64,000 nt of DNA from Flammeovirgaceae bacterium (GTDB lineage Bacteria; Bacteroidota; Bacteroidia; Cytophagales; Cyclobacteriaceae). Location: contig JAHEZH010000004.1 in assembly GCA_023251155.1 (NCBI GenBank), positions 15,306-79,305 of the forward strand, written 5' to 3'. Positions 9,007 to 21,928 of the stretch are shown piece by piece. The position numbers and the translations under genes were made by a program. The notes under the pieces are model-generated. The model was not told where the DNA came from and made no database searches. It was given only the letters and a program-made list of their open reading frames with translations. The stretch's first letter is position 1, and every line of letters starts with the position of its first letter.

Positions 9007-10413
9007 TTAATCCACTTCCTTAAACCGCTCATCACCACACATCCGCACAATCTTCGGCACGAATGAACCCAGTACTTGTACCAGTTCTTTCTGCGCGTCC
9101 ATTACCTGGTGAATGTCCTTATAGGCCATCGGTGCTTCATCCAAACCTGAGCCAATCAACTCCACTCCCGCCTCTTTCAAAAACTGGTTCACGGTTGATG
9201 GTGCAATGGTTTCCTTTGCTTTGGTACGTGACATGGTTCTGCCGGCACCATGTGAAGCAGAGTTGATGGACGATGCCATTCCTTTACCCCGAACAATAAA
9301 TCCAGGCGTTGCCATCGACCCTGGAATAATACCCAGCACCCCTTTACCTGCAGGTGTAGCTCCTTTACGATGCACGATCACTTCATTGCCCTGCCCATCT
9401 TTTTCCTTCCATGCAAAGTTGTGATGGTTCTCAATCATGGCAATGGGATGGGCACGAAGTCCAATGGCCATACGCTCATGGATCTGGTGATGACAGGCAG
9501 ATGCATAATCACCGGCAAGGTTCATCGCCAGCCAGTACTCTTGTCCCGCTTCGGTATTGAGATCAAGCCATGCGAGATGCTTTGCTTCCTGCGGAAGTTG
9601 ACAGGTCTCCATGGCTACTTTGGTATAATGTGCCGCGATAGCCGCACCCATACCACGTGAACCCGAGTGCGAAAGTAAAGCCAGGTATTTTCCGGGCAGT
9701 ACATAGTACTCGTTCACTGCCGAAAGAATTTCAACTACACCAAACTCCACAAAGTGATTTCCACCACCGGAAGTACCGATCTGTTTCCAGGCACGGTCCT
9801 TCAGGTCTTTTACTACTTTGATATCATTGAACTCTGCGCGCTGAAAAATTACGTGATCTTTCGGATGCCTGAACACGGCTGTGCCAAACTGGGTGTTGTT
9901 GATCAGCATCTTTTTCAACTCCTCTTTCTTCTCGTCCAGCATCGTCACCGGCAAGTCATACAGCGTAAGGCACATACGGCAACCGATATCCACACCTACT
10001 CCGTAAGGTATAACTGCATTGTTGGTCGCTAACACTCCACCAATAGGAAGTCCGTATCCCTGATGTGCATCGGGCATCAATGCTCCTGCTACAGTTACCG
10101 GAAGTTTCATGGCGGTAGCCATCTGCTTCAGCGCACCTTCTTCAATGGCTTCGGCTCCGTAGATGGAATACGAGGGTGATTGTTTATTTAAAGCGATAAT
10201 AGTATCCGCTGGTTTTCGCAGCTCATTGATGAGGTCAGATAGTTTCTCTTCTGACGAAAAAACTTCCGGAGCAGTAATTATCCTTTGCAACCATACTATT
10301 TGCTCCTCTTTCGTAAGAGTTGCATAGTGTTTTTCAATCATCCGCAAGGCGATACCGATTGCTTTTCCCTCCGGGAAACCTATGCTCTTGAGGTCTGTTC
10401 CTGTTAGTTTCAT
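9007..10413 (-). CDS. rtcB: RNA-splicing ligase RtcB, paralog 1
   Basis: MPDAHQGYGLPIGGVLA, GVDIGCRM, SGGGNHFVEFG, LLSHSGSRGMGA, NHHNFAWKE, SASHGAGRTMSR; start at MKLTGTDLKS (10413) preferred. Confidence 0.97.
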   Translation of the reverse strand: MKLTGTDLKSIGFPEGKAIGIALRMIEKHYATLTKEEQIVWLQRIITAPEVFSSEEKLSDLINELRKPADTIIALNKQSPSYSIYGAEAIEEGALKQMATAMKLPVTVAGALMPDAHQGYGLPIGGVLATNNAVIPYGVGVDIGCRMCLTLYDLPVTMLDEKKEELKKMLINNTQFGTAVFRHPKDHVIFQRAEFNDIKVVKDLKDRAWKQIGTSGGGNHFVEFGVVEILSAVNEYYVLPGKYLALLSHSGSRGMGAAIAAHYTKVAMETCQLPQEAKHLAWLDLNTEAGQEYWLAMNLAGDYASACHHQIHERMAIGLRAHPIAMIENHHNFAWKEKDGQGNEVIVHRKGATPAGKGVLGIIPGSMATPGFIVRGKGMASSINSASHGAGRTMSRTKAKETIAPSTVNQFLKEAGVELIGSGLDEAPMAYKDIHQVMDAQKELVQVLGSFVPKIVRMCGDERFKEVD

Positions 10414-10433
10414 TTCTTTTGTTATTAACATAC

Positions 10434-10473
10434 TTCAAAGGTGAGGCATGACCGCGCAGTCTTTTTGCGTAGT
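10434..10473. promoter_or_regulatory. Candidate operator site 1, upstream of rtcB paralog 1
   Basis: ttcaaaggtgaggcatgaccgcgcagtctttttgcgtagt, near-identical to blocks at 13042 and 15733. Confidence 0.7.
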
Positions 10474-11026: not shown

Positions 11027-11081
11027 TTTTAGTCTACTAAAAGTTTAATATCTATGTTATCTGATGATAACAACTATAAGT

Positions 11082-11153
11082 ACCGAAGGAGAGATTCGAA
11101 CTCTCAAAATCTGGTTTCTAAGACCAGCACGTATCCCGTTCCGTCACTTCGGC
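11082..11153 (-). tRNA. tRNA-Leu(UAG)-like RNA lacking a long variable arm and an encoded CCA
   Basis: Minus GCCGAAG-TG-ACGGAACGGGATACGT-G-CTGGTCTTAGAAACCAG-ATTTT-GAGAGTTCGAATCTCTC-CTTCGGT: 7-bp acceptor, 5-bp anticodon stem with TAG, perfect T-arm. Confidence 0.75.
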
Positions 11154-11206: not shown

Positions 11207-12304
11207 TTACTTTCGAGGCACAAAGATTTCCTTCAATTGATCGATGATCTGCGTTCCTCCTGATAAAGAAATGGTGTTGATCTTATCCGCAATCTTCTCC
11301 ACATATTCCATCTCCTTCAGTTTAAACAGCATTGCATTCTCTTCCATCAGTTTGGCCGTATTCAGCAAACTTCTTGTTGAAGCTGTTTCTTCCCTCCTCA
11401 TGATTACATTGGCTTCTGCTTTCTTCTGAGCAATCAACACCTGGTTCATGATCTCCTTCATTTCACCAGGAAGGATAATGTCTCTCATACCGCAATCGCG
11501 AAGCTCAACGCCAAGCACGGCTACTTTATCTCTTAAAGCGGACATAATATGGGTAGTCATCGATTCCTTTTTCTCCAGCAACTCATCCAGCGAAAGTGTA
11601 CCGATAAACTCTCTCAAGGCCAATTGAATCAAAATATACAGTTGCTTTTCATAATCCTTGTTCTCAATCACCGCCCTGATGATATCAGTGACTTTATATT
11701 GAGCATAAAAATTAATCCGCAACGCTGCTTTATCTCTGGTTAAAATTTCCTGTCCGGAAACCTCAAGTTGCAATTGTCTCAGATCAACCTTTGTTACAGA
11801 TACATCTTTCGCATTCTTCCAAAAATAATATTCGCCAGGTTCTAAAATCCGATCCAGCTTATTATCCACAAACAGAATTCCTTTTTCAAATGAATCTACT
11901 TTACACACCCGAATGAAGGGAACTAATTCTTTTCGTTTCATTGAGTCAAGATCGATGCTTTCAGTAATTTCCACTTTTCTCAAATCTGCTCGGACGAAAG
12001 TATAATCAATTACACCTTTCCAGTAAGCATACCTTCCTGCAGTCAATACATTCTTAAAGTTGCCGTTCTCATACAGCAATACAATTTCATGATCCTTTAC
12101 TTCCACTACAGTAAGCATATCAGCCAATTCTTTATCTTTCAAAAGAATAGTCAGCTCAATGGCTGAATGAAAAGGTTTGGTCATGTCATATTCATAAACA
12201 TCTTCACTCAGTAACCAATAGACACCGGCAGTAATCACTCTTTTGTAATCACCATTTTTAAAAACCAGCCCGACTTTACCATTGTTAATTCTAACTCTTT
12301 TCAT
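11207..12304 (-). CDS. Slipin / SPFH (band 7) family protein
   Basis: LRQLQLEVSGQEILTRDKAALRINFYAQYKVTD...LGVELRDCGMRDIILPGEMKEIMNQVLIAQKKAEANVIMRREETASTRSLLNTAKLM. Confidence 0.9.
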   Translation of the reverse strand: MKRVRINNGKVGLVFKNGDYKRVITAGVYWLLSEDVYEYDMTKPFHSAIELTILLKDKELADMLTVVEVKDHEIVLLYENGNFKNVLTAGRYAYWKGVIDYTFVRADLRKVEITESIDLDSMKRKELVPFIRVCKVDSFEKGILFVDNKLDRILEPGEYYFWKNAKDVSVTKVDLRQLQLEVSGQEILTRDKAALRINFYAQYKVTDIIRAVIENKDYEKQLYILIQLALREFIGTLSLDELLEKKESMTTHIMSALRDKVAVLGVELRDCGMRDIILPGEMKEIMNQVLIAQKKAEANVIMRREETASTRSLLNTAKLMEENAMLFKLKEMEYVEKIADKINTISLSGGTQIIDQLKEIFVPRK

Positions 12305-12697
12305 TTCACTCTTATTTTTAAATTATTAACTATCGCTTCTACCAATTTTCATCAGTAGTCAACTTCAAAAAAAGAAAGTAGTCAGCTGCACATCATCTTT
12401 AGCAAACGGAAGCATTGTTAAGTTCAATTCACCTGGCTTAGTTCTTCGAAAAAACGCTGAACCAGAATACAGATTCAATCTGCATTTCACTTCAGGCATA
12501 TCTTGCAAAGAAGTAAGTTGATTTACTGAACGGTATCTCAACACTTACTTAGTCTTCAGAAGACTGACTCTACTTGTTCATCTCCATTCCCCGAAGGCGA
12601 TGGCATGAACTAATAAGCCGGATCTGCCTCCAACCACTTTCAACATGGATGATCATTTTTAAAGAAGTGACCAACTTCTCCAACCAAAGGCTCCTTT

Positions 12698-12754
12698 AAA
12701 GGGAGTGGGGATTCGAACCCCGCTTTGTTGCTCTACCAGTTGAGCTACCCGCTA
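12698..12754 (-). ncRNA. tRNA-like element lacking an anticodon arm
   Basis: Minus TAGCGGG-TA-GCTCAACTGGTAGAGC-AACAAAGC-GGGGTTCGAATCCCC-ACTCCC: D-arm joined to T-arm by an 8-nt linker. Confidence 0.65.
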
Positions 12755-12756
12755 TT

Positions 12757-12940
12757 AACGGAGAGGGATTTGAACCCTCAACACACAAATTGAGAAAAAT
12801 AACATCGGGCGAAGCAGCATATTATTGCGCATGGCACAACAACACTACAGAGCCATACAGAAACTCTTATCAGGTCTTCTGCCTTATGTTTTCTTCCGCT
12901 CTAACCGGTCATTGACCAGGTTAAAGATTTTCTTTCCGTT
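12757..12940 (-). ncRNA. Interrupted tRNA-like element with T-arm, possible AACGGA/TCCGTT acceptor and a long hairpin in place of the D-arm
   Basis: T-arm GAGGG-TTCAAAT-CCCTC at 12763-12779; hairpin CTTTAACC-T-GGTC-AAT-GACC-GGTTAGAG at 12897-12925. Confidence 0.45.
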
Positions 12941-12977
12941 CCATTACGGAAAATAGTTTCAATGAACTTTATTCTAT

Positions 12978-13008
12978 CAAAACCTCTCCTTCACTATTGA
13001 AGGAGAGG
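12978..13008 (-). terminator. Long hairpin with T-run (terminator or attenuator)
   Basis: cctctccttca-ctat-tgaaggagagg (11 bp) with TTTT on the minus strand. Confidence 0.6.
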
Positions 13009-13041
13009 GCTGCTTTTGTTTTGTATCAATCGTTATTGATG

Positions 13042-13083
13042 ATTCAAAGGTGAAAGGCTACTGCGCAGTCTTTTTGCGTAGAG
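13042..13083. promoter_or_regulatory. Candidate operator site 2, inside the tRNA-like array
   Basis: attcaaaggtgaaaggctactgcgcagtctttttgcgtagag. Confidence 0.7.
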
Positions 13084-13130
13084 AAATTTATTTCCACAAA
13101 ATTTCATCTTCAAGCTCAGTAAAGAGGAAA

Positions 13131-13267
13131 TAGAAAAGACTAGAACTTTCCATCATCTGGTTCGTAGCCAGGGGATTTTCCAATTAATCGATGTTTCCTG
13201 ATGTTAAAAAATCAAGGCAAAAGACGAACAGCCAACAATGTGCTCTAACCAACTGAGCTACATCCAT
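13131..13267 (-). ncRNA. tRNA-Arg(ACG)-like element interrupted between the D-arm and anticodon arm
   Basis: D-arm TAGCTCAGTTGGTTAGAGC at 13242-13260; anticodon arm CTGG-CTACGAA-CCAG at 13157-13171; T-arm GGAAAG-TTCTAGT-CTTTTC at 13133-13151. Confidence 0.5.
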
Positions 13268-13284
13268 ATTCGGTATTTCCGATA

Positions 13285-13430
13285 CAGGAAGGCGGGACTC
13301 GAACCCGCGACCGCACGATCCTAATTCGAAGTAACGCTATTCTACGGCACTTGAATTTTCTTTTTAAAAACGAATGAGCAAAGAGCGTTAAGAGTTTTAT
13401 TGTTGCTCTACCAGGCTGAGCTACCTCAAA
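13285..13430 (-). ncRNA. tRNA-like element with an insert replacing the anticodon arm
   Basis: D-arm TAGCTCAGCCTGGTAGAGC at 13405-13423; GTA-N9-TAC hairpin at 13331-13345; T-arm GCGGG-TTCGAGT-CCCGC at 13292-13308. Confidence 0.6.
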
Positions 13431-13436
13431 CTTGCG

Positions 13437-13500
13437 CTCAAGAGTGGGATTTGAACCCACGACACACCGTTACCGAAGTAGCTCTTATCTACGGCATCGT
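13437..13500 (-). ncRNA. T-arm plus GTA-N9-TAC hairpin element (no D-arm seen)
   Basis: T-arm GTGGG-TTCAAAT-CCCAC at 13444-13460; hairpin at 13478-13492. Confidence 0.5.
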
Positions 13501-13703
13501 TTCGTTTATATTTTAAGCCACTGATTGCACAGATAGAATCAGTGACTATCATTTTAAAAAAGAGGTGAACAATTAACTTTTAACTATTCACCATTAACTA
13601 AGTTAAAAAAGGGCAAAAGACCATCAGAGGCTTTTAACGTGACAGGTTGAAGTAACTCTGGTGTACGGCACCTTTCTATGACGATGAAGCAATATTTGCA
13701 TAA

Positions 13704-13770
13704 AGTTCTGTGGATTCGAACCACTGGCCTTTCGACCATCAACCGATAGAAGTAGCTCTACACTACGGCA
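13704..13770 (-). ncRNA. T-arm, GAAA-tetraloop hairpin and GTA-N9-TAC hairpin element
   Basis: T-arm GTGG-TTCGAAT-CCAC at 13710-13724; TGGTC-GAAA-GGCCA at 13725-13738; hairpin at 13752-13766. Confidence 0.55.
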
Positions 13771-13821
13771 TTCATCATCACAATTATTAATAAGGAGTAA
13801 AATGCGAAATGAGAAAGTGGG

Positions 13822-13920
13822 CACTGCTATGCCGGGAATCGAACCCGGAACACTTTTCCATACGAGATGGATATGTGATTCCTCCCTTCGTGGCGAAGTA
13901 TCTCATTTCTACGACATCCT
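13822..13920 (-). ncRNA. T-arm, intermediate hairpins and GTA-N9-TAC hairpin element
   Basis: T-arm CCGGG-TTCGATT-CCCGG at 13832-13848; CCAT-CTCGT-ATGG hairpin; motif at 13898-13912. Confidence 0.5.
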
Positions 13921-13943
13921 TATTTTTTTCAAAGAACATTTTT

Positions 13944-14149
13944 GTGACCTTATCCGGATTCGAACCGAAATTCCCTCACGGGCAGTATGGCTCTAAATGC
14001 GCTTCCCTACTTTACTTCTTCAGAGCGGTATTTCGGTGCATCTGCAAATTCTATCCGTTATAGCGCGTAGCAGTAACGGAATCATCCATACACGCTGCGG
14101 AACGATCTGGACTTTTACCGCAGGCTTTTCCTTTTAAGCTATAAGGTCT
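13944..14149 (-). ncRNA. tRNA-like scaffold with about 150-nt structured insert in the anticodon region
   Basis: Acceptor GACCTT(A)/(T)AAGGTC; D-arm TAGCTTAAAAGGAAAAGC; T-arm TTCGG-TTCGAAT-CCGGA; insert hairpins CTGCGG..CCGCAG, TCCGTTA..TAACGGA, CCC-GTGA-GGG. Confidence 0.6.
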
Positions 14150-14190: not shown

Positions 14191-15711
14191 CTACAATTCT
14201 ATCTTTTCAATTTCAGCGAGTGCGTTCCCGCCTTCTTCCAATGCCGATAGTACATCGAAAATCTTATCCGACCATCCCGCTATCAAGTACACCCCATCGT
14301 TGCGCACATCGATAGGTGTAGTTCCATAGCCTGCCAGGTCAAACAAATACAACTTTGCCTTTGGAACTATCTTTCGATATTGTTTCCATAAAGAAGCAAT
14401 GTTGTCCTGCACAGCATTATCTGCACTGTTCCATAACTGACAATCCGTGAACATCATGATCTTATCCACCACCTTTTTCCGATTAATCAGATCTTTCACT
14501 ACCAGGTATCCGTTAGTTGAATAACCTACTTCACCTTCGCGGCTGTAAAACTCCTGCACGTTGGCAAGAATATTCTTACGCGACACGTTGATGATTTTCC
14601 AGGTATCGCCAAACATACCCGTCTGCACATAATCGCAGCGCGATTGCAACAGCATACCCAACATCAAACCGATATCGTAGTTCAGTATCTTGCTCTTCGC
14701 GGAAATGGCTTTCTGCATCGAACCAGAAACATCGCAGGCAATCATCACCGAAGTATCTTTTCCAAAGCCACGGATGTTCATCGCGCTTTGCTCTACTGCT
14801 TGTTCCAATGCATCCAATACCATTGCTACCGCACCAGAGTTCAATACTTTTACCTCACGGTAAGCAGCCAGAAAACGGAAAGGCAATTGCTTCGACTTCA
14901 TCACCGCATTTTTATCCGACAATACCGCACACACTTTAGTCATGGCTTCCCTGGAAACTTCCGCCTCAATAATGTTGCGCAGGTTTCGCATCAACGCCAT
15001 ATACCCCAATGCTCCGTTCAGGATCAGTTCCTCCCACTTGACACGGAAAGCCGCCTGTTTCTCCTGCTCACCGGCAAACTTGTTCTGGCCTAACATCGAC
15101 AACTCGGTCTCCCAGGTATAAGGCACCTGCAATTCATCTTTGGCAATCTTGTTGAACACCACCTGTTGCGCTTCATTCACGGCTTTGGGGTGAACCAGAA
15201 ACAATGCATCCTTCAATCTGATTTCCGCATCACGGTTATATTTTGCAAACTGATATTCATCAAAGCGATTAAATGCTTCCGCTAAACCACGTTGTATCTG
15301 CTTCGAGAGCTTATTTAACTTCTTGGTTTCTTTACGGTCGTTGGCCAATTGATAATACGCCAGCAACTCCGTGATTTCATCTGCACGCTGTACTACCCCG
15401 TTCACTGCTTTGTTTACAATACCGTTTCCGGATTTTACTTTTGCCAGTTCAACCGCCAATACCAGAGGAATGCTTCGCATATACATTTTGTTACGCGCAT
15501 ACACTGCCAGTTGTGCTACGAAAGAAGGATCGTTCTGACCAATCAGCACACGGATGCGCTCCATCCGGTCGTTACCTGACTCATAGAACGTGTTGCTCAA
15601 TGAAGTAGTCACCACCGCACTGTAGAGTTCGGCACGTTTATCTACTGAAAAAGCGGTTGCTCCCTGGTAGTTGGTGACCGGTGTTGCCTTTTTAAATACA
15701 TTGAACTTCAT
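14191..15711 (-). CDS. Ro60-like protein: TROVE domain plus vWA domain
   Basis: MRSIPLVLAVELAKVKSGNG, TROVE helical repeats; MIDAS DVSGSM; start MKFNVFKKATP at 15711 preferred over the ORF-track start 15810. Confidence 0.93.
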   Translation of the reverse strand: MKFNVFKKATPVTNYQGATAFSVDKRAELYSAVVTTSLSNTFYESGNDRMERIRVLIGQNDPSFVAQLAVYARNKMYMRSIPLVLAVELAKVKSGNGIVNKAVNGVVQRADEITELLAYYQLANDRKETKKLNKLSKQIQRGLAEAFNRFDEYQFAKYNRDAEIRLKDALFLVHPKAVNEAQQVVFNKIAKDELQVPYTWETELSMLGQNKFAGEQEKQAAFRVKWEELILNGALGYMALMRNLRNIIEAEVSREAMTKVCAVLSDKNAVMKSKQLPFRFLAAYREVKVLNSGAVAMVLDALEQAVEQSAMNIRGFGKDTSVMIACDVSGSMQKAISAKSKILNYDIGLMLGMLLQSRCDYVQTGMFGDTWKIINVSRKNILANVQEFYSREGEVGYSTNGYLVVKDLINRKKVVDKIMMFTDCQLWNSADNAVQDNIASLWKQYRKIVPKAKLYLFDLAGYGTTPIDVRNDGVYLIAGWSDKIFDVLSALEEGGNALAEIEKIEL

Positions 15712-15731: not shown

Positions 15732-15773
15732 GATTCAAAGGTGAACGGCCACTGCGCAGTCTTTTTGCGTAGT
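15732..15773. promoter_or_regulatory. Candidate operator site 3, between divergent Ro60 and WYL-PhyH genes
   Basis: gattcaaaggtgaacggccactgcgcagtctttttgcgtagt; inverted arms ACTACGCA-N7-TGCGCAGT (one mismatch). Confidence 0.75.
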
Positions 15774-15809: not shown

Positions 15810-17543
15810 ATGCCTGTCACCCGAAACGCCCTCGTTCGCTACCGTACCATCGACAACTGCCTGAGAAACAGGCAACGCAAATGGACGTTGGAAGATTTAA
15901 TCGATACGTGCTCGGAAGCACTCTATGAATATGAAGGCATAGATAAAGGAGTGAGCAGGCGATCCATACAAATGGACATTCAACTCATGCGAAGCGATAA
16001 GCTGGGTTATAATGCCCCCATTGTTGTGCTGGAAAAGAAGTACTACACTTACGAAGATCCGGACTATTCCATCACCAACATTCCATTGACCGACCAGGAT
16101 CTGGGCAAGCTCACCGAAGTAGTAGAGATACTGCGACAGTTCAAAGGCTTCAGTCATTTTCAGGACCTGAGCGGGATGGTGCAACGACTGGAAAACAAAA
16201 TCCATTCTGCAAAAACACAACAGGAACCCATCATTGACTTTGAGAGGAACGACCATCTCAAAGGATTAGAGCATATTGAAACTCTCTATCAAACGATCAT
16301 CAATAAAAAGGCCATTGAACTTTGCTATCAGTCGTTTAAGGCACGGACCTCCAACACCTTTACTTTTCATCCTTATTATCTCAAGGAATACCGCAACCGC
16401 TGGTTTGTGATTGGTATCAAAAAGAAGAACACACCTGTCATGAACCTGGCGCTTGACCGGATCATCAGTATCACAGAAACGTCAGTAAAGTATCAGCCAC
16501 GAGAAAATTTCACCATCTCTTCATTATTGAATAATGTGATCGGTGTTTCTGTAAACACGGAAGGGACTACTGAGCACGTAGTGTTTATGGCCGATTATCA
16601 TACTGCTCCTTACATCCTTACCAAACCCTTGCATCACTCACAACAATTAGTAGAGAAGCGGCAGGACGGAATCGTTTTTTCCATTGATGTACAGCTCAAT
16701 TTTGAACTGGAACGTGAGTTGCTTGGCTTTGGTGACCGAATTAAAGTAATAGCCCCGGATAGACTAAAACGCAATCTGAGAGAAATATTTTCCAATGCCG
16801 TTGATCTTTACCAGCACGAATTCAGTACTTCCAGCTTGCAGAACAACCTGCAAAAACTGAAGCACAAAGGTTTTATGATGCTGAATCATCTCTACCTGAA
16901 GAAAGAAGTGAACCAAATAAAACTGGCTGTTCATCAACATTTGCGATCAACCGGACAGCCGCCCGATACACATGCTGTGCGTTACCTGCTTAATGAAGTT
17001 CCTTCGCTCAGGAAAATGATATTTAACACTAACCTGCTACAGCTTCTTCAGCGGATCGATTCCAGATTATTTTTAACCAAAGCCATTTACTTTGATAAGA
17101 CACCGGAAGCCAACTGGTACGTTACCTGGCATCAGGACATTATTATCAATGTAAAAGAAAAAATAGAAACAGAAGGCTTCACCGGCTGGACGAAGAAAGC
17201 AGGAGTTCATGGCGTATGCCCTCCGGATGAAATATTAACCAATACGATTACTGTCCGTATTCATCTGGACGATGCGAATGAACATAATGGTGCGTTGAAA
17301 GTCATTCCGGGGTCACATCAAAAGAAGCTGAGCGATGAAGAAATCAGTGTCATCGCTCAGAATAGTTTTTCACAAACATGCCAGGTAAGTGCCGGATGTA
17401 TTCACGTGATGAAACCTTTGCTCCTGCATTCCTCTTCGAAGGCAACCAATACTTCGCACAGGAGAGTGATTCATCTGGAGTTTAATACGATGGAACTGCC
17501 CAATGGCCTGGAATGGGCCGAGAGATTGGAGTTGAATAAATAG
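15810..17543 (+). CDS. WYL-domain transcriptional regulator fused to a C-terminal PhyH-like dioxygenase domain
   Basis: N-terminus wHTH/WYL (IELCYQSFKARTSNTFTFHPYYLKEYRNRWFVIGI); C-terminus WYVTWHQDIIINV...HNGALKVIPGSHQKK...CIHVMKPLLLHSSSKATNTSHRRVIHLEF. Confidence 0.85.
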   Translation: MPVTRNALVRYRTIDNCLRNRQRKWTLEDLIDTCSEALYEYEGIDKGVSRRSIQMDIQLMRSDKLGYNAPIVVLEKKYYTYEDPDYSITNIPLTDQDLGKLTEVVEILRQFKGFSHFQDLSGMVQRLENKIHSAKTQQEPIIDFERNDHLKGLEHIETLYQTIINKKAIELCYQSFKARTSNTFTFHPYYLKEYRNRWFVIGIKKKNTPVMNLALDRIISITETSVKYQPRENFTISSLLNNVIGVSVNTEGTTEHVVFMADYHTAPYILTKPLHHSQQLVEKRQDGIVFSIDVQLNFELERELLGFGDRIKVIAPDRLKRNLREIFSNAVDLYQHEFSTSSLQNNLQKLKHKGFMMLNHLYLKKEVNQIKLAVHQHLRSTGQPPDTHAVRYLLNEVPSLRKMIFNTNLLQLLQRIDSRLFLTKAIYFDKTPEANWYVTWHQDIIINVKEKIETEGFTGWTKKAGVHGVCPPDEILTNTITVRIHLDDANEHNGALKVIPGSHQKKLSDEEISVIAQNSFSQTCQVSAGCIHVMKPLLLHSSSKATNTSHRRVIHLEFNTMELPNGLEWAERLELNK

Positions 17544-19674: not shown

Positions 19675-20541
19675 TTAAAGGGTGAAACTTATTTTATGAA
19701 GACAAAGATAACGTCTCGTGCACAGAAACGAAAGGAGGAAGAATAGGTTACAAAAAAAAGAAACCCCAGTCTCATGGGGTTTCTTGTATTCAACATTCAT
19801 AATACGGTCGGGCCAATGTTCATGAAGAACATCAGAGAAGGATACATTCCTTAAAGGATTGTCAAAAATCTTCCTTCTTTCCCATCGATAAGAACAATCT
19901 AAAATTTTCCATAACCGAGGACGAAGATGATGTGTGACAAACAAACGGCTGATCTCCCCTACTCGTCTCTCATAATGTATATTCTTTACCTGAAACTTAG
20001 TGATCATGTTAGGTTTAATCTGGAGAACAAATCGCCACGGCTCTGTAAACAAAAATACTCTTTCAACTCTTCCTTTATCATGCACGAGAGATTCATAAAA
20101 AAGCTCACGCTCGGCATCAGTAAATTTCTTGCCATAGAACTCCCTTTCTGATAACTTCCTCAGCAGTTGCTCTCGGACAACATATACCTTTTTACCAAAT
20201 CGTCTTCGCTTCTTTTTAAAATCCTTCCTCGAACTCCATTGAGTTGTATTGATCTTATCCAACACAGTCTGATATAAGGCTGCCTTCTTTTCTCTCTTTA
20301 CATCGCTGCGCAACACAAAAAGCCGATTCCATCCCTTTTGATAGGGCGGCTTTAAATCAATCCATTCCTGAGAACGAATGCGCTTTACAATCTCTACTTC
20401 TTCATCATATAATCTGCGTAACATCTTATCATGCGCTTCAATGGCTGATCGTCTTCTTCTCCGATAAGATCTAAATCTGCCATGCTGGATATACTCGCTA
20501 TCTGCCCGATTCATAACTTTAATCTTTAGCCATCCGAACAA
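19675..20541 (-). CDS. Basic hypothetical protein overlapping the 3' end of rtcB paralog 2
   Basis: Arg/Lys-rich ORF; start possibly MNRADSEYIQ at 20514; C-terminal tail reads through the terminator. Confidence 0.6.
   Translation of the reverse strand: MFGWLKIKVMNRADSEYIQHGRFRSYRRRRRSAIEAHDKMLRRLYDEEVEIVKRIRSQEWIDLKPPYQKGWNRLFVLRSDVKREKKAALYQTVLDKINTTQWSSRKDFKKKRRRFGKKVYVVREQLLRKLSEREFYGKKFTDAERELFYESLVHDKGRVERVFLFTEPWRFVLQIKPNMITKFQVKNIHYERRVGEISRLFVTHHLRPRLWKILDCSYRWERRKIFDNPLRNVSFSDVLHEHWPDRIMNVEYKKPHETGVSFFCNLFFLLSFLCTRRYLCLHKISFTL
19752..19784 (-). terminator. Rho-independent terminator within the annotated 3' end of ORF 19675-20541
   Basis: Minus AGAAACCCCA-TGAGAC-TGGGGTTTCT-TTTTTTT. 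Confidence 0.75.
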
Positions 20542-21928
20542 TCTTCGGATGGAATTTTCCTTCTGTTGCGACCAGCGTTCCCTGGCTTTTCATTACTGCT
20601 TCGATGTCTTTGTAGGCCATCGGAGCTTCTTCCGGGCTTCCGCCAATAAGTGTTACTTTCTCCGACTGTAAGAGTTTCTTCATCGCGCTTACCGTAGTCG
20701 ACTCTTTTGCTTTCAGACGCGACATCTTTCTGCCCGCGCCATGAGCGGCCGAGTTCAGCGACAACTCATTACCCAATCCACGCACAATAAAACCTGGCGC
20801 AGTCATGCTTCCGGGAATGATTCCATATACCTCCTTTGCAGCAGGCGTAGCTCCTTTGCGGTGAACGATGTATTCCTTTCCATCACTCAATGTTTCTTTC
20901 CATGCAAAGTTGTGATGGTTCTCTACCACACGAAGCACTTCTGCACCCAATGCACGGCAGATGTTTCCATGAATGCGATCGTGACATGCTTTGGCATATT
21001 CACCTGCCAGGTTCATGGAGAGCCAGTACTCCTGACCTTCGGCACTCTCCATCGTTAACCACGCCAGCTGCTTTGCTTCACGCGGCAATTTGCAGGTGTT
21101 CATCGCGATGTTGGTATAATGCTGCGCAATGTTTGCTCCCAGGCTTCGTGAGCCGGAGTGCGAAAGCAATGCGGCATAGTTAGCAGCAGGAAGTTGAAAG
21201 GTATTCCCTTCCGCTAATTCAACGATACCGAACTCCACAAAGTGATTACCCGAGCCTGAACTCCCCAGTTGCCTCACCGACTTTCCATGCAGTCGTCTCA
21301 GCAATTCCGTTTGTTGAAAGTGCGGATGATCCAGCACCTCATGCTCCTGGTGGAACTCCAGTCCGCCATCATTACCAAAATGCGTATAGTCCTGTAGCAC
21401 TTTCCTCAACGCATAAGCATTATGTTCGACATAGCTCGCCGGCAGATCAAGAATACTCAACGCCATACGGCAACCGATGTCCATCCCTACACCATACGGA
21501 ATCACGGCATTCTCAGCAGCCAGCACGCCACCAATAGGAATACCATACCCCTGGTGTGCATCCGGCATCAGAGCGCCATACACTGCCACCGGCAATCGCA
21601 TGGCCATCTCCATTTGCCTGATTGCGTTGCCTTCGATGTGCTTGTTACCAAACACTTCAAAATGTTTTTCCTCGTGTTCTAATTCATAACTTAATGAAGA
21701 TGCTTTGTCTTCGGTTTTATTGGTTAGTTTATAAGCCAGCGTTCCTAATACTTCATGATTGAAATACAATTCCGGCTCGCTCAGCACATGTGTTAATACT
21801 GATATTTTTTCTTCGATGGATGAATGCTTAAAGCCCCGGTTTATGCTATTCATAGCGAGACTGATCGCAACATCGGACGAATAGCCAATGAGACGCACGT
21901 CCCGGCTATTCAATTTTTGATTGCCCAT
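20519..21928 (-). CDS. rtcB: RNA-splicing ligase RtcB, paralog 2
   Basis: MPDAHQGYGIPIGGVLAAENAVIPYGVGMDIGCRM, SGSGNHFVEFG, NHHNFAWKE, AAHGAGRKMSR. Confidence 0.97.
   Translation of the reverse strand: MGNQKLNSRDVRLIGYSSDVAISLAMNSINRGFKHSSIEEKISVLTHVLSEPELYFNHEVLGTLAYKLTNKTEDKASSLSYELEHEEKHFEVFGNKHIEGNAIRQMEMAMRLPVAVYGALMPDAHQGYGIPIGGVLAAENAVIPYGVGMDIGCRMALSILDLPASYVEHNAYALRKVLQDYTHFGNDGGLEFHQEHEVLDHPHFQQTELLRRLHGKSVRQLGSSGSGNHFVEFGIVELAEGNTFQLPAANYAALLSHSGSRSLGANIAQHYTNIAMNTCKLPREAKQLAWLTMESAEGQEYWLSMNLAGEYAKACHDRIHGNICRALGAEVLRVVENHHNFAWKETLSDGKEYIVHRKGATPAAKEVYGIIPGSMTAPGFIVRGLGNELSLNSAAHGAGRKMSRLKAKESTTVSAMKKLLQSEKVTLIGGSPEEAPMAYKDIEAVMKSQGTLVATEGKFHPKIVRMAKD

What the first reader, a model, noticed from the sequence alone, without database searches (positions are those of the whole stretch)
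12698..14149. Array of degenerate and interrupted tRNA-like RNAs between the Ro60 and slipin genes
Seen directly: about 1.5 kb with no convincing ORF carries T-arms on the minus strand at 12707-12721, 12763-12779, 13133-13151, 13292-13308, 13444-13460, 13710-13724, 13832-13848 and 13955-13971. Canonical D-arms are seen at about 12730-12747, 13242-13260 and 13405-13423, with a weaker one near 14124-14142. Most elements lack a normal anticodon arm or have it replaced by an insert, so they are unlikely to serve in translation. They are co-oriented with the flanking Ro60, slipin and RtcB genes. Known background: bacterial Y RNAs lie near Ro60 (rsr) genes and contain tRNA-like modules, and tRNA fragments regulate the Salmonella rsr-rtcBA operon. 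Inference: these are a diversified family of Y-RNA-like or tRNA-mimic ncRNAs that act as substrates, decoys or sensors for the RNA-repair proteins encoded here. I cannot tell whether such an array has been described before.
Basis: partly seen in the sequence, partly recalled or inferred. Interest (0 to 1): 0.88.

Follow-up and report, generated by a model that had tools for sequence, protein, structure and literature searches.

The report
Ro60 Y-RNA array in RNA-repair locus
The 1.5-kb stretch is a real, conserved cluster of small RNAs (five bacterial Y RNAs that should load onto the neighbouring Ro60 protein, most of them mimicking parts of tRNA, plus other tRNA-shaped RNAs, one of a kind not in the RNA database), which suggests that many Bacteroidota keep a toolkit of tRNA mimics and spare tRNAs beside their RNA-repair enzymes.

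Summary
In detail: seven good T-arms on the minus strand (shuffles average 0.27), with three D-arms. The elements are not decayed tRNAs. Five are Y RNAs: a terminal stem with a 21-nt motif (GYCGUA-N9-UACUUC) and, in two, a T-arm, acceptor 3' strand, loop, acceptor 5' strand and D-arm, i.e. a circularly permuted tRNA with capped acceptor. That is YrlA architecture.

The five are distinct and keep order and type in relatives (Chryseolinea and allies). Comparable arrays lie at Ro60 in all 80 Bacteroidota loci fetched (1-7 units), yet no Y RNA passes Rfam's cut-off in the window or four loci tested.

The stretch also holds a ~200-nt tRNA-scaffold RNA (element A; 34 of 45 pairs covary; no Rfam match), a tRNA-Arg-like gene and, in a separate unit, permuted tRNA modules in the slipin leader. 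A ~20-bp element occurs three times in the 6.4-Mb genome, only before Ro60, the slipin leader and RtcB.

Verdict: Y RNAs are a known kind; the array, element A and spare-tRNA arrays in related loci make it a new variant. Mechanism is inferred; there are no expression data.

The parts
14191..15711 (-). Ro60/TROVE gene (rsr-like), upstream in the same direction
   Evidence: Pfam TROVE 6e-28 and vWA_Ro60; profile matches solved TROVE/Ro60/Rsr structures 9l5y, 9kop, 1yvp, 2nvo
13946..14148 (-). Element A: ~200-nt tRNA-scaffold RNA; acceptor GACCTTA (14148-14142) with TAAGGTC (13952-13946), D-arm, T-arm 13953-13969, ~120-nt conserved insert in place of anticodon and variable arms
   Evidence: 23 full-length copies in repair loci, window included; 45 pairs, 34 with compensatory changes, 97.5% of cells paired against 78.4% shuffled; no Rfam match at E<5
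13789..13924 (-). Y RNA 1 (Deinococcus-type: T-arm module, no D-arm); motif GTCGTAGAAATGAGATACTTC starts at 13915
   Evidence: RF01053 34.7 bits, below gathering; alignment of 8 orthologues and fold; fold z -3.6
13678..13779 (-). Y RNA 2 (short, T-arm only); motif starts at 13769
   Evidence: Ro-stem motif, five of seven genome-wide matches here; orthologues in collinear order; fold z -2.8
13605..13677 (-). Y RNA 3 (minimal, no tRNA module); motif starts at 13669
   Evidence: motif; orthologues in L032, L039-L046; P2 stem CAGAG/CTCTG read directly
13366..13503 (-). Y RNA 4 (YrlA-type: T-arm, acceptor, D-arm in permuted order); motif starts at 13495
   Evidence: RF02553 36.1 bits over the whole model; acceptor halves TCTTGAG / TTTGAGG pair 7 of 7 in permuted order; alignment
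13204..13357 (-). Y RNA 5 (YrlA-type, permuted); motif starts at 13348
   Evidence: RF02553 31.6 bits; 9 orthologues, permuted acceptor helix with compensatory changes in 6 of 8 pairs
13126..13198 (-). tRNA-Arg(ACG)-like element; intact Arg(ACG) genes sit in the repair locus of relatives
   Evidence: ARAGORN relaxed and Rfam 27.1 bits; intact in L028 and L032
13060..13080 (-). operator/promoter-like element TACGCAAAAAGACTGCGCAGT before the slipin leader
   Evidence: 3 copies in the window, 0 expected; the 19-bp core occurs only 3 times in the 6.44-Mb genome
15751..15771 (-). same element before Ro60
10451..10471 (-). same element (1 mismatch) before RtcB
12677..12787 (-). slipin-leader RNA: tandem tRNA-like modules in permuted order (module 1 T-arm 12763-12779 and D-arm 12728-12747, acceptor halves TCCGTTA/TAGCGGG pair 7 of 7; module 2 T-arm 12706-12722)
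   Evidence: RF02553 45.2 bits, E 2e-8; permuted module upstream of slipin in 25 of 36 slipin loci; alignment
11207..12304 (-). slipin (SPFH/Band 7) gene
   Evidence: Pfam Band_7 3e-30
11080..11153 (-). extra tRNA-Leu(UAG) without long variable arm (class I, 74 nt)
   Evidence: the genome's other Leu(UAG) is an 83-nt class II gene
9007..10431 (-). RtcB RNA ligase
   Evidence: Pfam RtcB 2e-82
15810..17543 (+). divergent WYL-domain regulator fused to a PhyH dioxygenase domain, candidate regulator of the locus
   Evidence: Pfam WYL, WCX, PhyH

Best explanation
The core of the stretch is an operonic array of five bacterial Y RNAs encoded just after the Ro60 gene. Each RNA's 5' and 3' ends pair into a two-part stem around a conserved internal loop (5' GYCGUA ... 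UACUUC); this is the presumed Ro60-binding handle. The other end differs between the five: two present a tRNA elbow with a capped acceptor stem (YrlA-type, circularly permuted tRNA), one a Deinococcus-type T-arm module, one a short T-arm, one no tRNA module. Most likely the Ro60 ring is loaded with one of several interchangeable adaptors, which gate its cavity or tether different partner enzymes for decay or repair of damaged structured RNA. The set is probably switched on together with slipin and RtcB through a locus-specific operator, plausibly by the divergent WYL-domain regulator, when RNA is damaged. Shown: the RNA-like architecture, its conservation and the gene context. Inferred: that the RNAs are made, Ro60 binding, partner identity, inducibility, and the regulator. 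Element A, the tRNA-Arg-like gene and the slipin-leader modules are separate tRNA-derived RNAs of the same repair locus.
For: Rfam models: YrlA at 45.2 (slipin leader), 36.1 (Y4) and 31.6 (Y5) bits and Deinococcus Y RNA at 34.7 bits (Y1) in the window; similar hits in syntenic L032. The 21-nt motif occurs 7 times in the whole genome, 5 of them here (reversed-pattern control: 5 in all). In 80 Bacteroidota Ro60 loci a slightly looser motif occurs 302 times within 2.5 kb downstream of Ro60 against 31 in the 2.5 kb upstream; with the strict motif every locus has 1-7 units and 77 of 80 have at least one with a T-arm. The P2 stem pairs at 5.75 of 8 positions against 4.57 +/- 0.08 when partners are reshuffled (max 4.87 of 1000). 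In Y5 the permuted acceptor helix has compensatory changes in 6 of 8 pairs. 35 of 36 units in nine relatives best match a window unit in collinear order, while paralogues within the window match each other poorly. The strongest YrlA arrays found elsewhere in the phylum (G641, G620) also lie just after Ro60 genes. Published YrlA structure: end-pairing stem for Rsr, D/T/acceptor-like domain for PNPase (PMC8394870).
Against: No expression or binding data. All Rfam scores are below gathering, and the YrlA model also gives weak hits in 6 of 14 control genomes, so the 31-36-bit scores alone prove little. Minimum-energy folds of Y3, Y4 and Y5 alone are not clearly more stable than shuffles. For Y2 and Y3 the case rests on the motif, the stem and orthology. 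The helix counts for Y5 come from a structure predicted on the same nine sequences. The 3' tail of a Y unit was located by motif and P1 pairing in only 122 of 327 units.
Confidence: 0.8

Rival explanations
1. Decaying tRNA pseudogenes left by an old tRNA cluster, without function.
For: Some elements are weak (tRNA-Arg-like 27 bits); many related loci carry real tRNA arrays, so decay products would be expected; single-sequence folds of Y3-Y5 are unremarkable.
Against: Five distinct units keep order and identity across nine related loci; compensatory changes in the permuted acceptor and in element A (34 of 45 pairs); the same 21-nt motif downstream of Ro60 across Bacteroidota.
Confidence: 0.03
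2. Decoys, sensors or substrates for anticodon nucleases and the repair ligase: the tRNA-like RNAs report or absorb tRNA damage.
For: tRNA fragments regulate the Salmonella operon, and its authors suggest that the YrlA tRNA-like domain could competitively inhibit the nuclease (PMC7790460); repair loci here carry extra tRNAs with intact anticodon loops.
Against: I find no tRNA anticodon arm and no free acceptor end in the Y units; in Salmonella YrlA fragments were not detected (PMC7790460); the conserved features are the Ro-type stem and the elbow.
Confidence: 0.12
3. Circularly permuted tRNA genes that are cut and religated by the neighbouring RtcB into working tRNAs.
For: Permuted order with paired acceptor halves; some slipin-leader second modules also carry an anticodon-arm-like hairpin; RtcB is next door; permuted tRNA genes that are processed and religated are known in algae and an archaeon (PMC3978253).
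Against: Loops between acceptor halves in the slipin leaders are often only 1-6 nt; the Y units are closed by the Ro-type stem instead of an anticodon arm; module 1 of the slipin leader has no anticodon arm; the genome already has a broad tRNA set elsewhere.
Confidence: 0.04

Closest known systems
Bacterial Y RNA YrlA (RF02553) and the Salmonella rsr-yrlBA-rtcBA operon
   Same: End-pairing stem plus tRNA-like D/T/acceptor domain in permuted order; encoded between Ro60 and RtcB genes
   Different: Five distinct Y RNAs instead of two; sequence differs enough from the YrlA model that none passes the Rfam cut-off; no RtcA or RtcR was seen among the neighbours examined; a WYL regulator and slipin instead
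Deinococcus radiodurans Y RNA (RF01053)
   Same: Y1 matches end to end at 34.7 bits, including the CCG..AG ... UACUUC region and the T-arm block
   Different: Below the gathering score of 80; one of an array
SPFH/Band-7-linked 'novel tRNA-like molecule' of Burroughs and Aravind 2016 (NAR, gkw722; known to me from memory of the abstract, paper not held)
   Same: tRNA-like RNA linked to a slipin in RNA-repair loci; may be the slipin-leader modules described here
   Different: Could not be compared; tandem permutation and the five-member Y array could not be checked against it
Anabaena trn operon / TrcR regulon (PMC10272220)
   Same: Spare tRNA genes, rtcB and a slipin gene controlled by one repressor relieved under translational stress
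   Different: There the genes are dispersed and no Ro60 or Y RNA is mentioned; here they are physically clustered
tmRNA
   Same: Element A has a tRNA-like acceptor and T-arm around a large structured insert
   Different: No tag-peptide ORF identified; keeps a D-arm; no tmRNA model hit over element A

Membership tests
Bacterial Y RNA (Y1-Y5) | encoded next to a Ro60/TROVE gene | tested here: met
   directly downstream of Ro60 in the window; units at all 80 Ro60 loci fetched
Bacterial Y RNA (Y1-Y5) | 5' and 3' ends pair into a stem with the conserved Ro-type internal-loop motif | tested here: met
   motif 5 times; P2 complementarity above reshuffled partners, P1 used to locate the 3' end
Bacterial Y RNA (Y1-Y5) | at least one Y RNA per species with a tRNA-like domain | tested here: met
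   Y4 and Y5 full, Y1 and Y2 T-arm; T-arm in 77 of 80 loci, full permuted module in 62
Bacterial Y RNA (Y1-Y5) | binds Ro60/Rsr | not testable with these tools
   needs a binding assay or CLIP
Rfam YrlA RF02553 | score at or above gathering (69 bits) | tested here: not met
   best 45.2 bits (slipin leader), 36.1 (Y4), 31.6 (Y5); so filed as Y RNA by architecture, not as RF02553
Rfam Deinococcus_Y_RNA RF01053 | score at or above gathering (80 bits) | tested here: not met
   Y1 34.7 bits
Functional tRNA | collinear cloverleaf with free acceptor and anticodon | tested here: not met
   Y4 and Y5 are permuted with capped acceptors; only the Arg-like element and the tRNA-Leu at 11080-11153 are collinear cloverleaves
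tmRNA (for element A) | tag ORF with stop and a tmRNA covariance-model match | tested here: not met
   the only tmRNA model hits are 14-16-bit T-arm fragments at Y1, Y4 and Y5, none over element A; ARAGORN, which also looks for tmRNA, reports none in the window

The most novel reading that the evidence does not exclude
The stretch is part of a clustered tRNA-damage response island of Bacteroidota in which Ro60 with a kit of several Y RNAs, an undescribed tRNA-scaffold RNA (element A), permuted tRNA modules in the slipin leader and a bank of spare tRNAs (including Leu tRNAs stripped of their long variable arm) are deployed together with RtcB, Thg1, Tpt1 and kinases; element A is a new class of structured RNA with its own function in that response.
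Probability: 0.4. Interest if true: 0.85.

Novelty: new variant of a known kind. Interest (0 to 1): 0.7.

Why it matters
What bacterial Ro60 and its Y RNAs do, and why several Y RNAs are needed, is open. Here a Ro60 operon carries five Y RNAs of several architectures that are individually conserved, which makes 'one ring, several adaptors' directly testable by deleting them one at a time. Multi-Y arrays are the rule in the Bacteroidota Ro60 loci sampled, yet no Y RNA passes current Rfam cut-offs in the five loci checked (the window and four others). Element A is a well-supported structured RNA with no match in Rfam. The link of Y RNAs, spare tRNAs, slipin and RtcB in one locus ties the bacterial Ro60 system to tRNA damage and parallels the Anabaena TrcR regulon.

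Tried and rejected
Collinear reading of D-arm then T-arm as tRNAs with deleted anticodon arms: rejected, because the acceptor halves pair in permuted order (7 of 7 in Y4 and slipin module 1) and, where I compared the collinear alternative by eye, not in that order. Weak YrlA scores as proof: set aside, since the model also rings in control genomes. Element A in phages or plasmids: no match; one IMG/VR pattern hit (L150) lies in a GC-rich stretch with overlapping ORFs and no other resemblance, and looks like chance. Covariance model R1 of element A across the phylum: four genomes at 192-209 bits; the 21-38-bit tail I take to be ordinary tRNAs, from the ~75-nt length of most of these hits, without checking each; the strict filters may miss true copies. 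Papers on tRNA arrays with RtcB: only the Anabaena paper is held; Burroughs and Aravind 2016 and Chen 2014 are not held.

Full report
Setting. The window lies in a 6.44-Mb genome (G000, contig C275). The array sits in a minus-strand RNA-repair locus: Ro60/TROVE (14191-15711), the array, slipin (11207-12304), an extra tRNA-Leu, an exonuclease, RtcB (9007-10431), then an AAA_33 kinase-like protein, Thg1 and Tpt1, with a WYL-PhyH regulator diverging from Ro60 and an HD-AAA_33 protein upstream; a second RtcB-like ORF lies at 20519-21928.

Observation. Seven T-arms lie on the minus strand and none on the plus strand; 300 shuffles of the region average 0.27 and never exceed 3.

What the elements are. 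Read on the transcribed strand, the array is: element A (14148-13946), Y1 (13924-13789), Y2 (13779-13678), Y3 (13677-13605), Y4 (13503-13366), Y5 (13357-13204), a tRNA-Arg-like element (13198-13126), then an operator-like element (13080-13060) that probably starts a new unit, the slipin leader, with tandem tRNA-like modules (12787-12677). Rfam models, below their cut-offs, recognise Y4, Y5 and the slipin module as YrlA and Y1 as Deinococcus Y RNA, and Y1, Y4 and Y5 likewise in the syntenic locus L032, Y1 there only marginally.

Architecture. Each Y unit starts with a P1 strand, then GYCGUA, nine bases of P2, UACUUC, a variable module, the P2 complement, a U-rich internal-loop strand and the P1 complement. 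In Y4 and Y5 the module is T-arm, acceptor 3' strand, loop, acceptor 5' strand, UA, D-arm, that is a circularly permuted tRNA with a capped acceptor stem. The acceptor halves of Y4 pair 7 of 7; those of the window's Y5 pair less well, but in nine Y5 orthologues the permuted acceptor helix shows compensatory changes in 6 of 8 pairs, and the whole structure has 95.1% of cells paired against 88.0% after shuffling and at most 53.3% when slid. This matches the published description of YrlA: a basal stem made by the two ends that holds Rsr, and a domain resembling the D, T and acceptor arms that binds PNPase (PMC8394870).

Conservation. In nine related loci (L032, L039-L046) 35 of 36 units best match a window unit in collinear order, and paralogues within the window score far lower. 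A scan of the GTDB genomes gave 80 Ro60 loci, nearly all labelled Bacteroidota. The loose 21-nt motif occurs 302 times within 2.5 kb after Ro60, 31 times in the 2.5 kb before it, 81 times elsewhere on that strand and 118 times on the whole opposite strand of 1.26 Mb. With the strict motif each locus has 1-7 units (317 in all); 77 loci have a unit with a T-arm and 62 a full permuted module. Choosing the 3' end by motif and P1 only, P2 complementarity exceeds 1000 reshufflings (5.75 against 4.57, sd 0.08, of 8 pairs). At gathering thresholds Rfam reports no Y RNA in the window or in four such loci. In the window's own genome the motif occurs 7 times, 5 in this array.

Caution on Rfam scores. The YrlA model gives weak hits in control genomes, including E. 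coli and B. subtilis; neighbouring tRNA genes, where one T-arm is followed by the next D-arm, are a likely reason, which I did not check. The decisive evidence is the Ro-type stem and the covarying permuted acceptor. Independent support: the two genomes with the strongest YrlA arrays in the phylum (G641, G620) carry them directly after a Ro60 gene.

Element A. A ~200-nt RNA with a complete tRNA acceptor, D-arm and T-arm but a ~120-nt insert with conserved blocks. nhmmer finds 23 full-length copies among the loci fetched, the window's included (one locus appears twice under different ids). On 18 of them RNAalifold predicts 45 pairs, 34 with compensatory changes; counted against controls, 97.5% of cells pair (shuffled 78.4%, slid at most 42.5%) and 163 cells change on both sides (shuffled 43.7). 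The structure was derived from the same alignment, so the slid control is lenient, but the acceptor stem, expected beforehand from tRNA, covaries at all 7 pairs. Rfam has no match. The fold of the window copy alone is not unusual (z -0.8). In a sample of 378 genomes of the phylum four have it at 192-209 bits; phages and plasmids have none. In one genome (L152) it follows a WYL gene without tRNAs nearby.

Slipin leader. In 25 of 36 slipin loci examined a permuted T-acceptor-D module with at least 6 of 7 acceptor pairs lies a few hundred bases upstream of the slipin start; several have two in tandem, the second in places with an anticodon-arm-like hairpin. Three relatives (L028, L029, L031) keep it with no Ro60 in the stretch fetched. 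This may be the 'novel tRNA-like molecule' that Burroughs and Aravind tied to SPFH/Band-7 proteins in 2016; I know that only from memory of the abstract.

Spare tRNAs. Many of the 80 Ro60 loci hold tRNA arrays within 8 kb (up to 17 genes), and one further locus has over 20 (L155). 272 non-redundant tRNAs from 37 such loci (which may include some ordinary neighbours) average 6.8 of 7 acceptor pairs and keep discriminator bases (His C73 15 of 15, Asp G73 13 of 13, Cys U73 8 of 8), so they look chargeable. The Leu genes are mostly class I in length (74-76 nt), while the window genome's 34 other tRNAs include a class II Leu(UAG) of 83 nt.

Regulation. TACGCAAAAAGACTGCGCAGT occurs before Ro60, the slipin leader and RtcB (none expected by chance); its 19-bp core occurs nowhere else in the genome with up to one mismatch. 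The divergent WYL protein is the obvious candidate regulator, by inference. Precedents: tRNA fragments activate the Salmonella operon (PMC7790460; PMC8394870), and Anabaena TrcR represses a tRNA operon and rtcB, with a slipin gene among those strongly raised in its mutant (PMC10272220).

Mechanism. Most likely Ro60 is loaded with one of several Y RNAs whose distal modules gate the ring or tether different enzymes. The stems, modules and gene order are shown; transcription, binding, partners and induction are inferred. Decoy or sensor roles remain possible for the collinear tRNA-like genes; processing of permuted modules into tRNAs by RtcB is unlikely given the short loops and missing anticodon arms.

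Limits. No expression data; related loci come almost only from Bacteroidota; motif-based counts include some chance hits; the literature search covers open-licence papers only, so 'undescribed' means not found there or in Rfam 15.

Noticed in passing
window 13946-14148 (-); copies in L029, L032, L035, L041, L043, L044, L048, L066, L069, L077, L088, L104, L107, L151-L155: Element A: undescribed ~200-nt tRNA-scaffold RNA with strong covariation and no Rfam match, one full copy per repair locus.
   Followed up: yes
L048, L051, L053, L054, L057, L062, L072, L095, L151, L154, L155, L157: Large arrays of extra tRNA genes near or interleaved with Y RNAs at Bacteroidota Ro60/slipin/RtcB loci; the Leu genes mostly lack the long variable arm.
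   Followed up: partly
window 11080-11153 (-): Class-I tRNA-Leu(UAG) with A37 beside slipin, while the housekeeping Leu(UAG) is class II with G37.
   Followed up: partly
window 12677-12787 (-); L010, L011, L013, L044, L119-L130 and others: Slipin leaders with one or two tandem circularly permuted tRNA-like modules.
   Followed up: partly
window 10451-10471, 13060-13080, 15751-15771 (-): Locus-specific operator-like element, three copies in the whole genome.
   Followed up: partly
window 15810-17543 (+): WYL-domain regulator fused to a PhyH-type dioxygenase domain, also full length in L028, L029, L032, L037; function of the fusion unknown.
   Followed up: no
window 14184-14155 and about 13009-12978 (-): Hairpins followed by T runs just after Ro60 and early in the slipin leader, possible attenuators or processing sites.
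   Followed up: no
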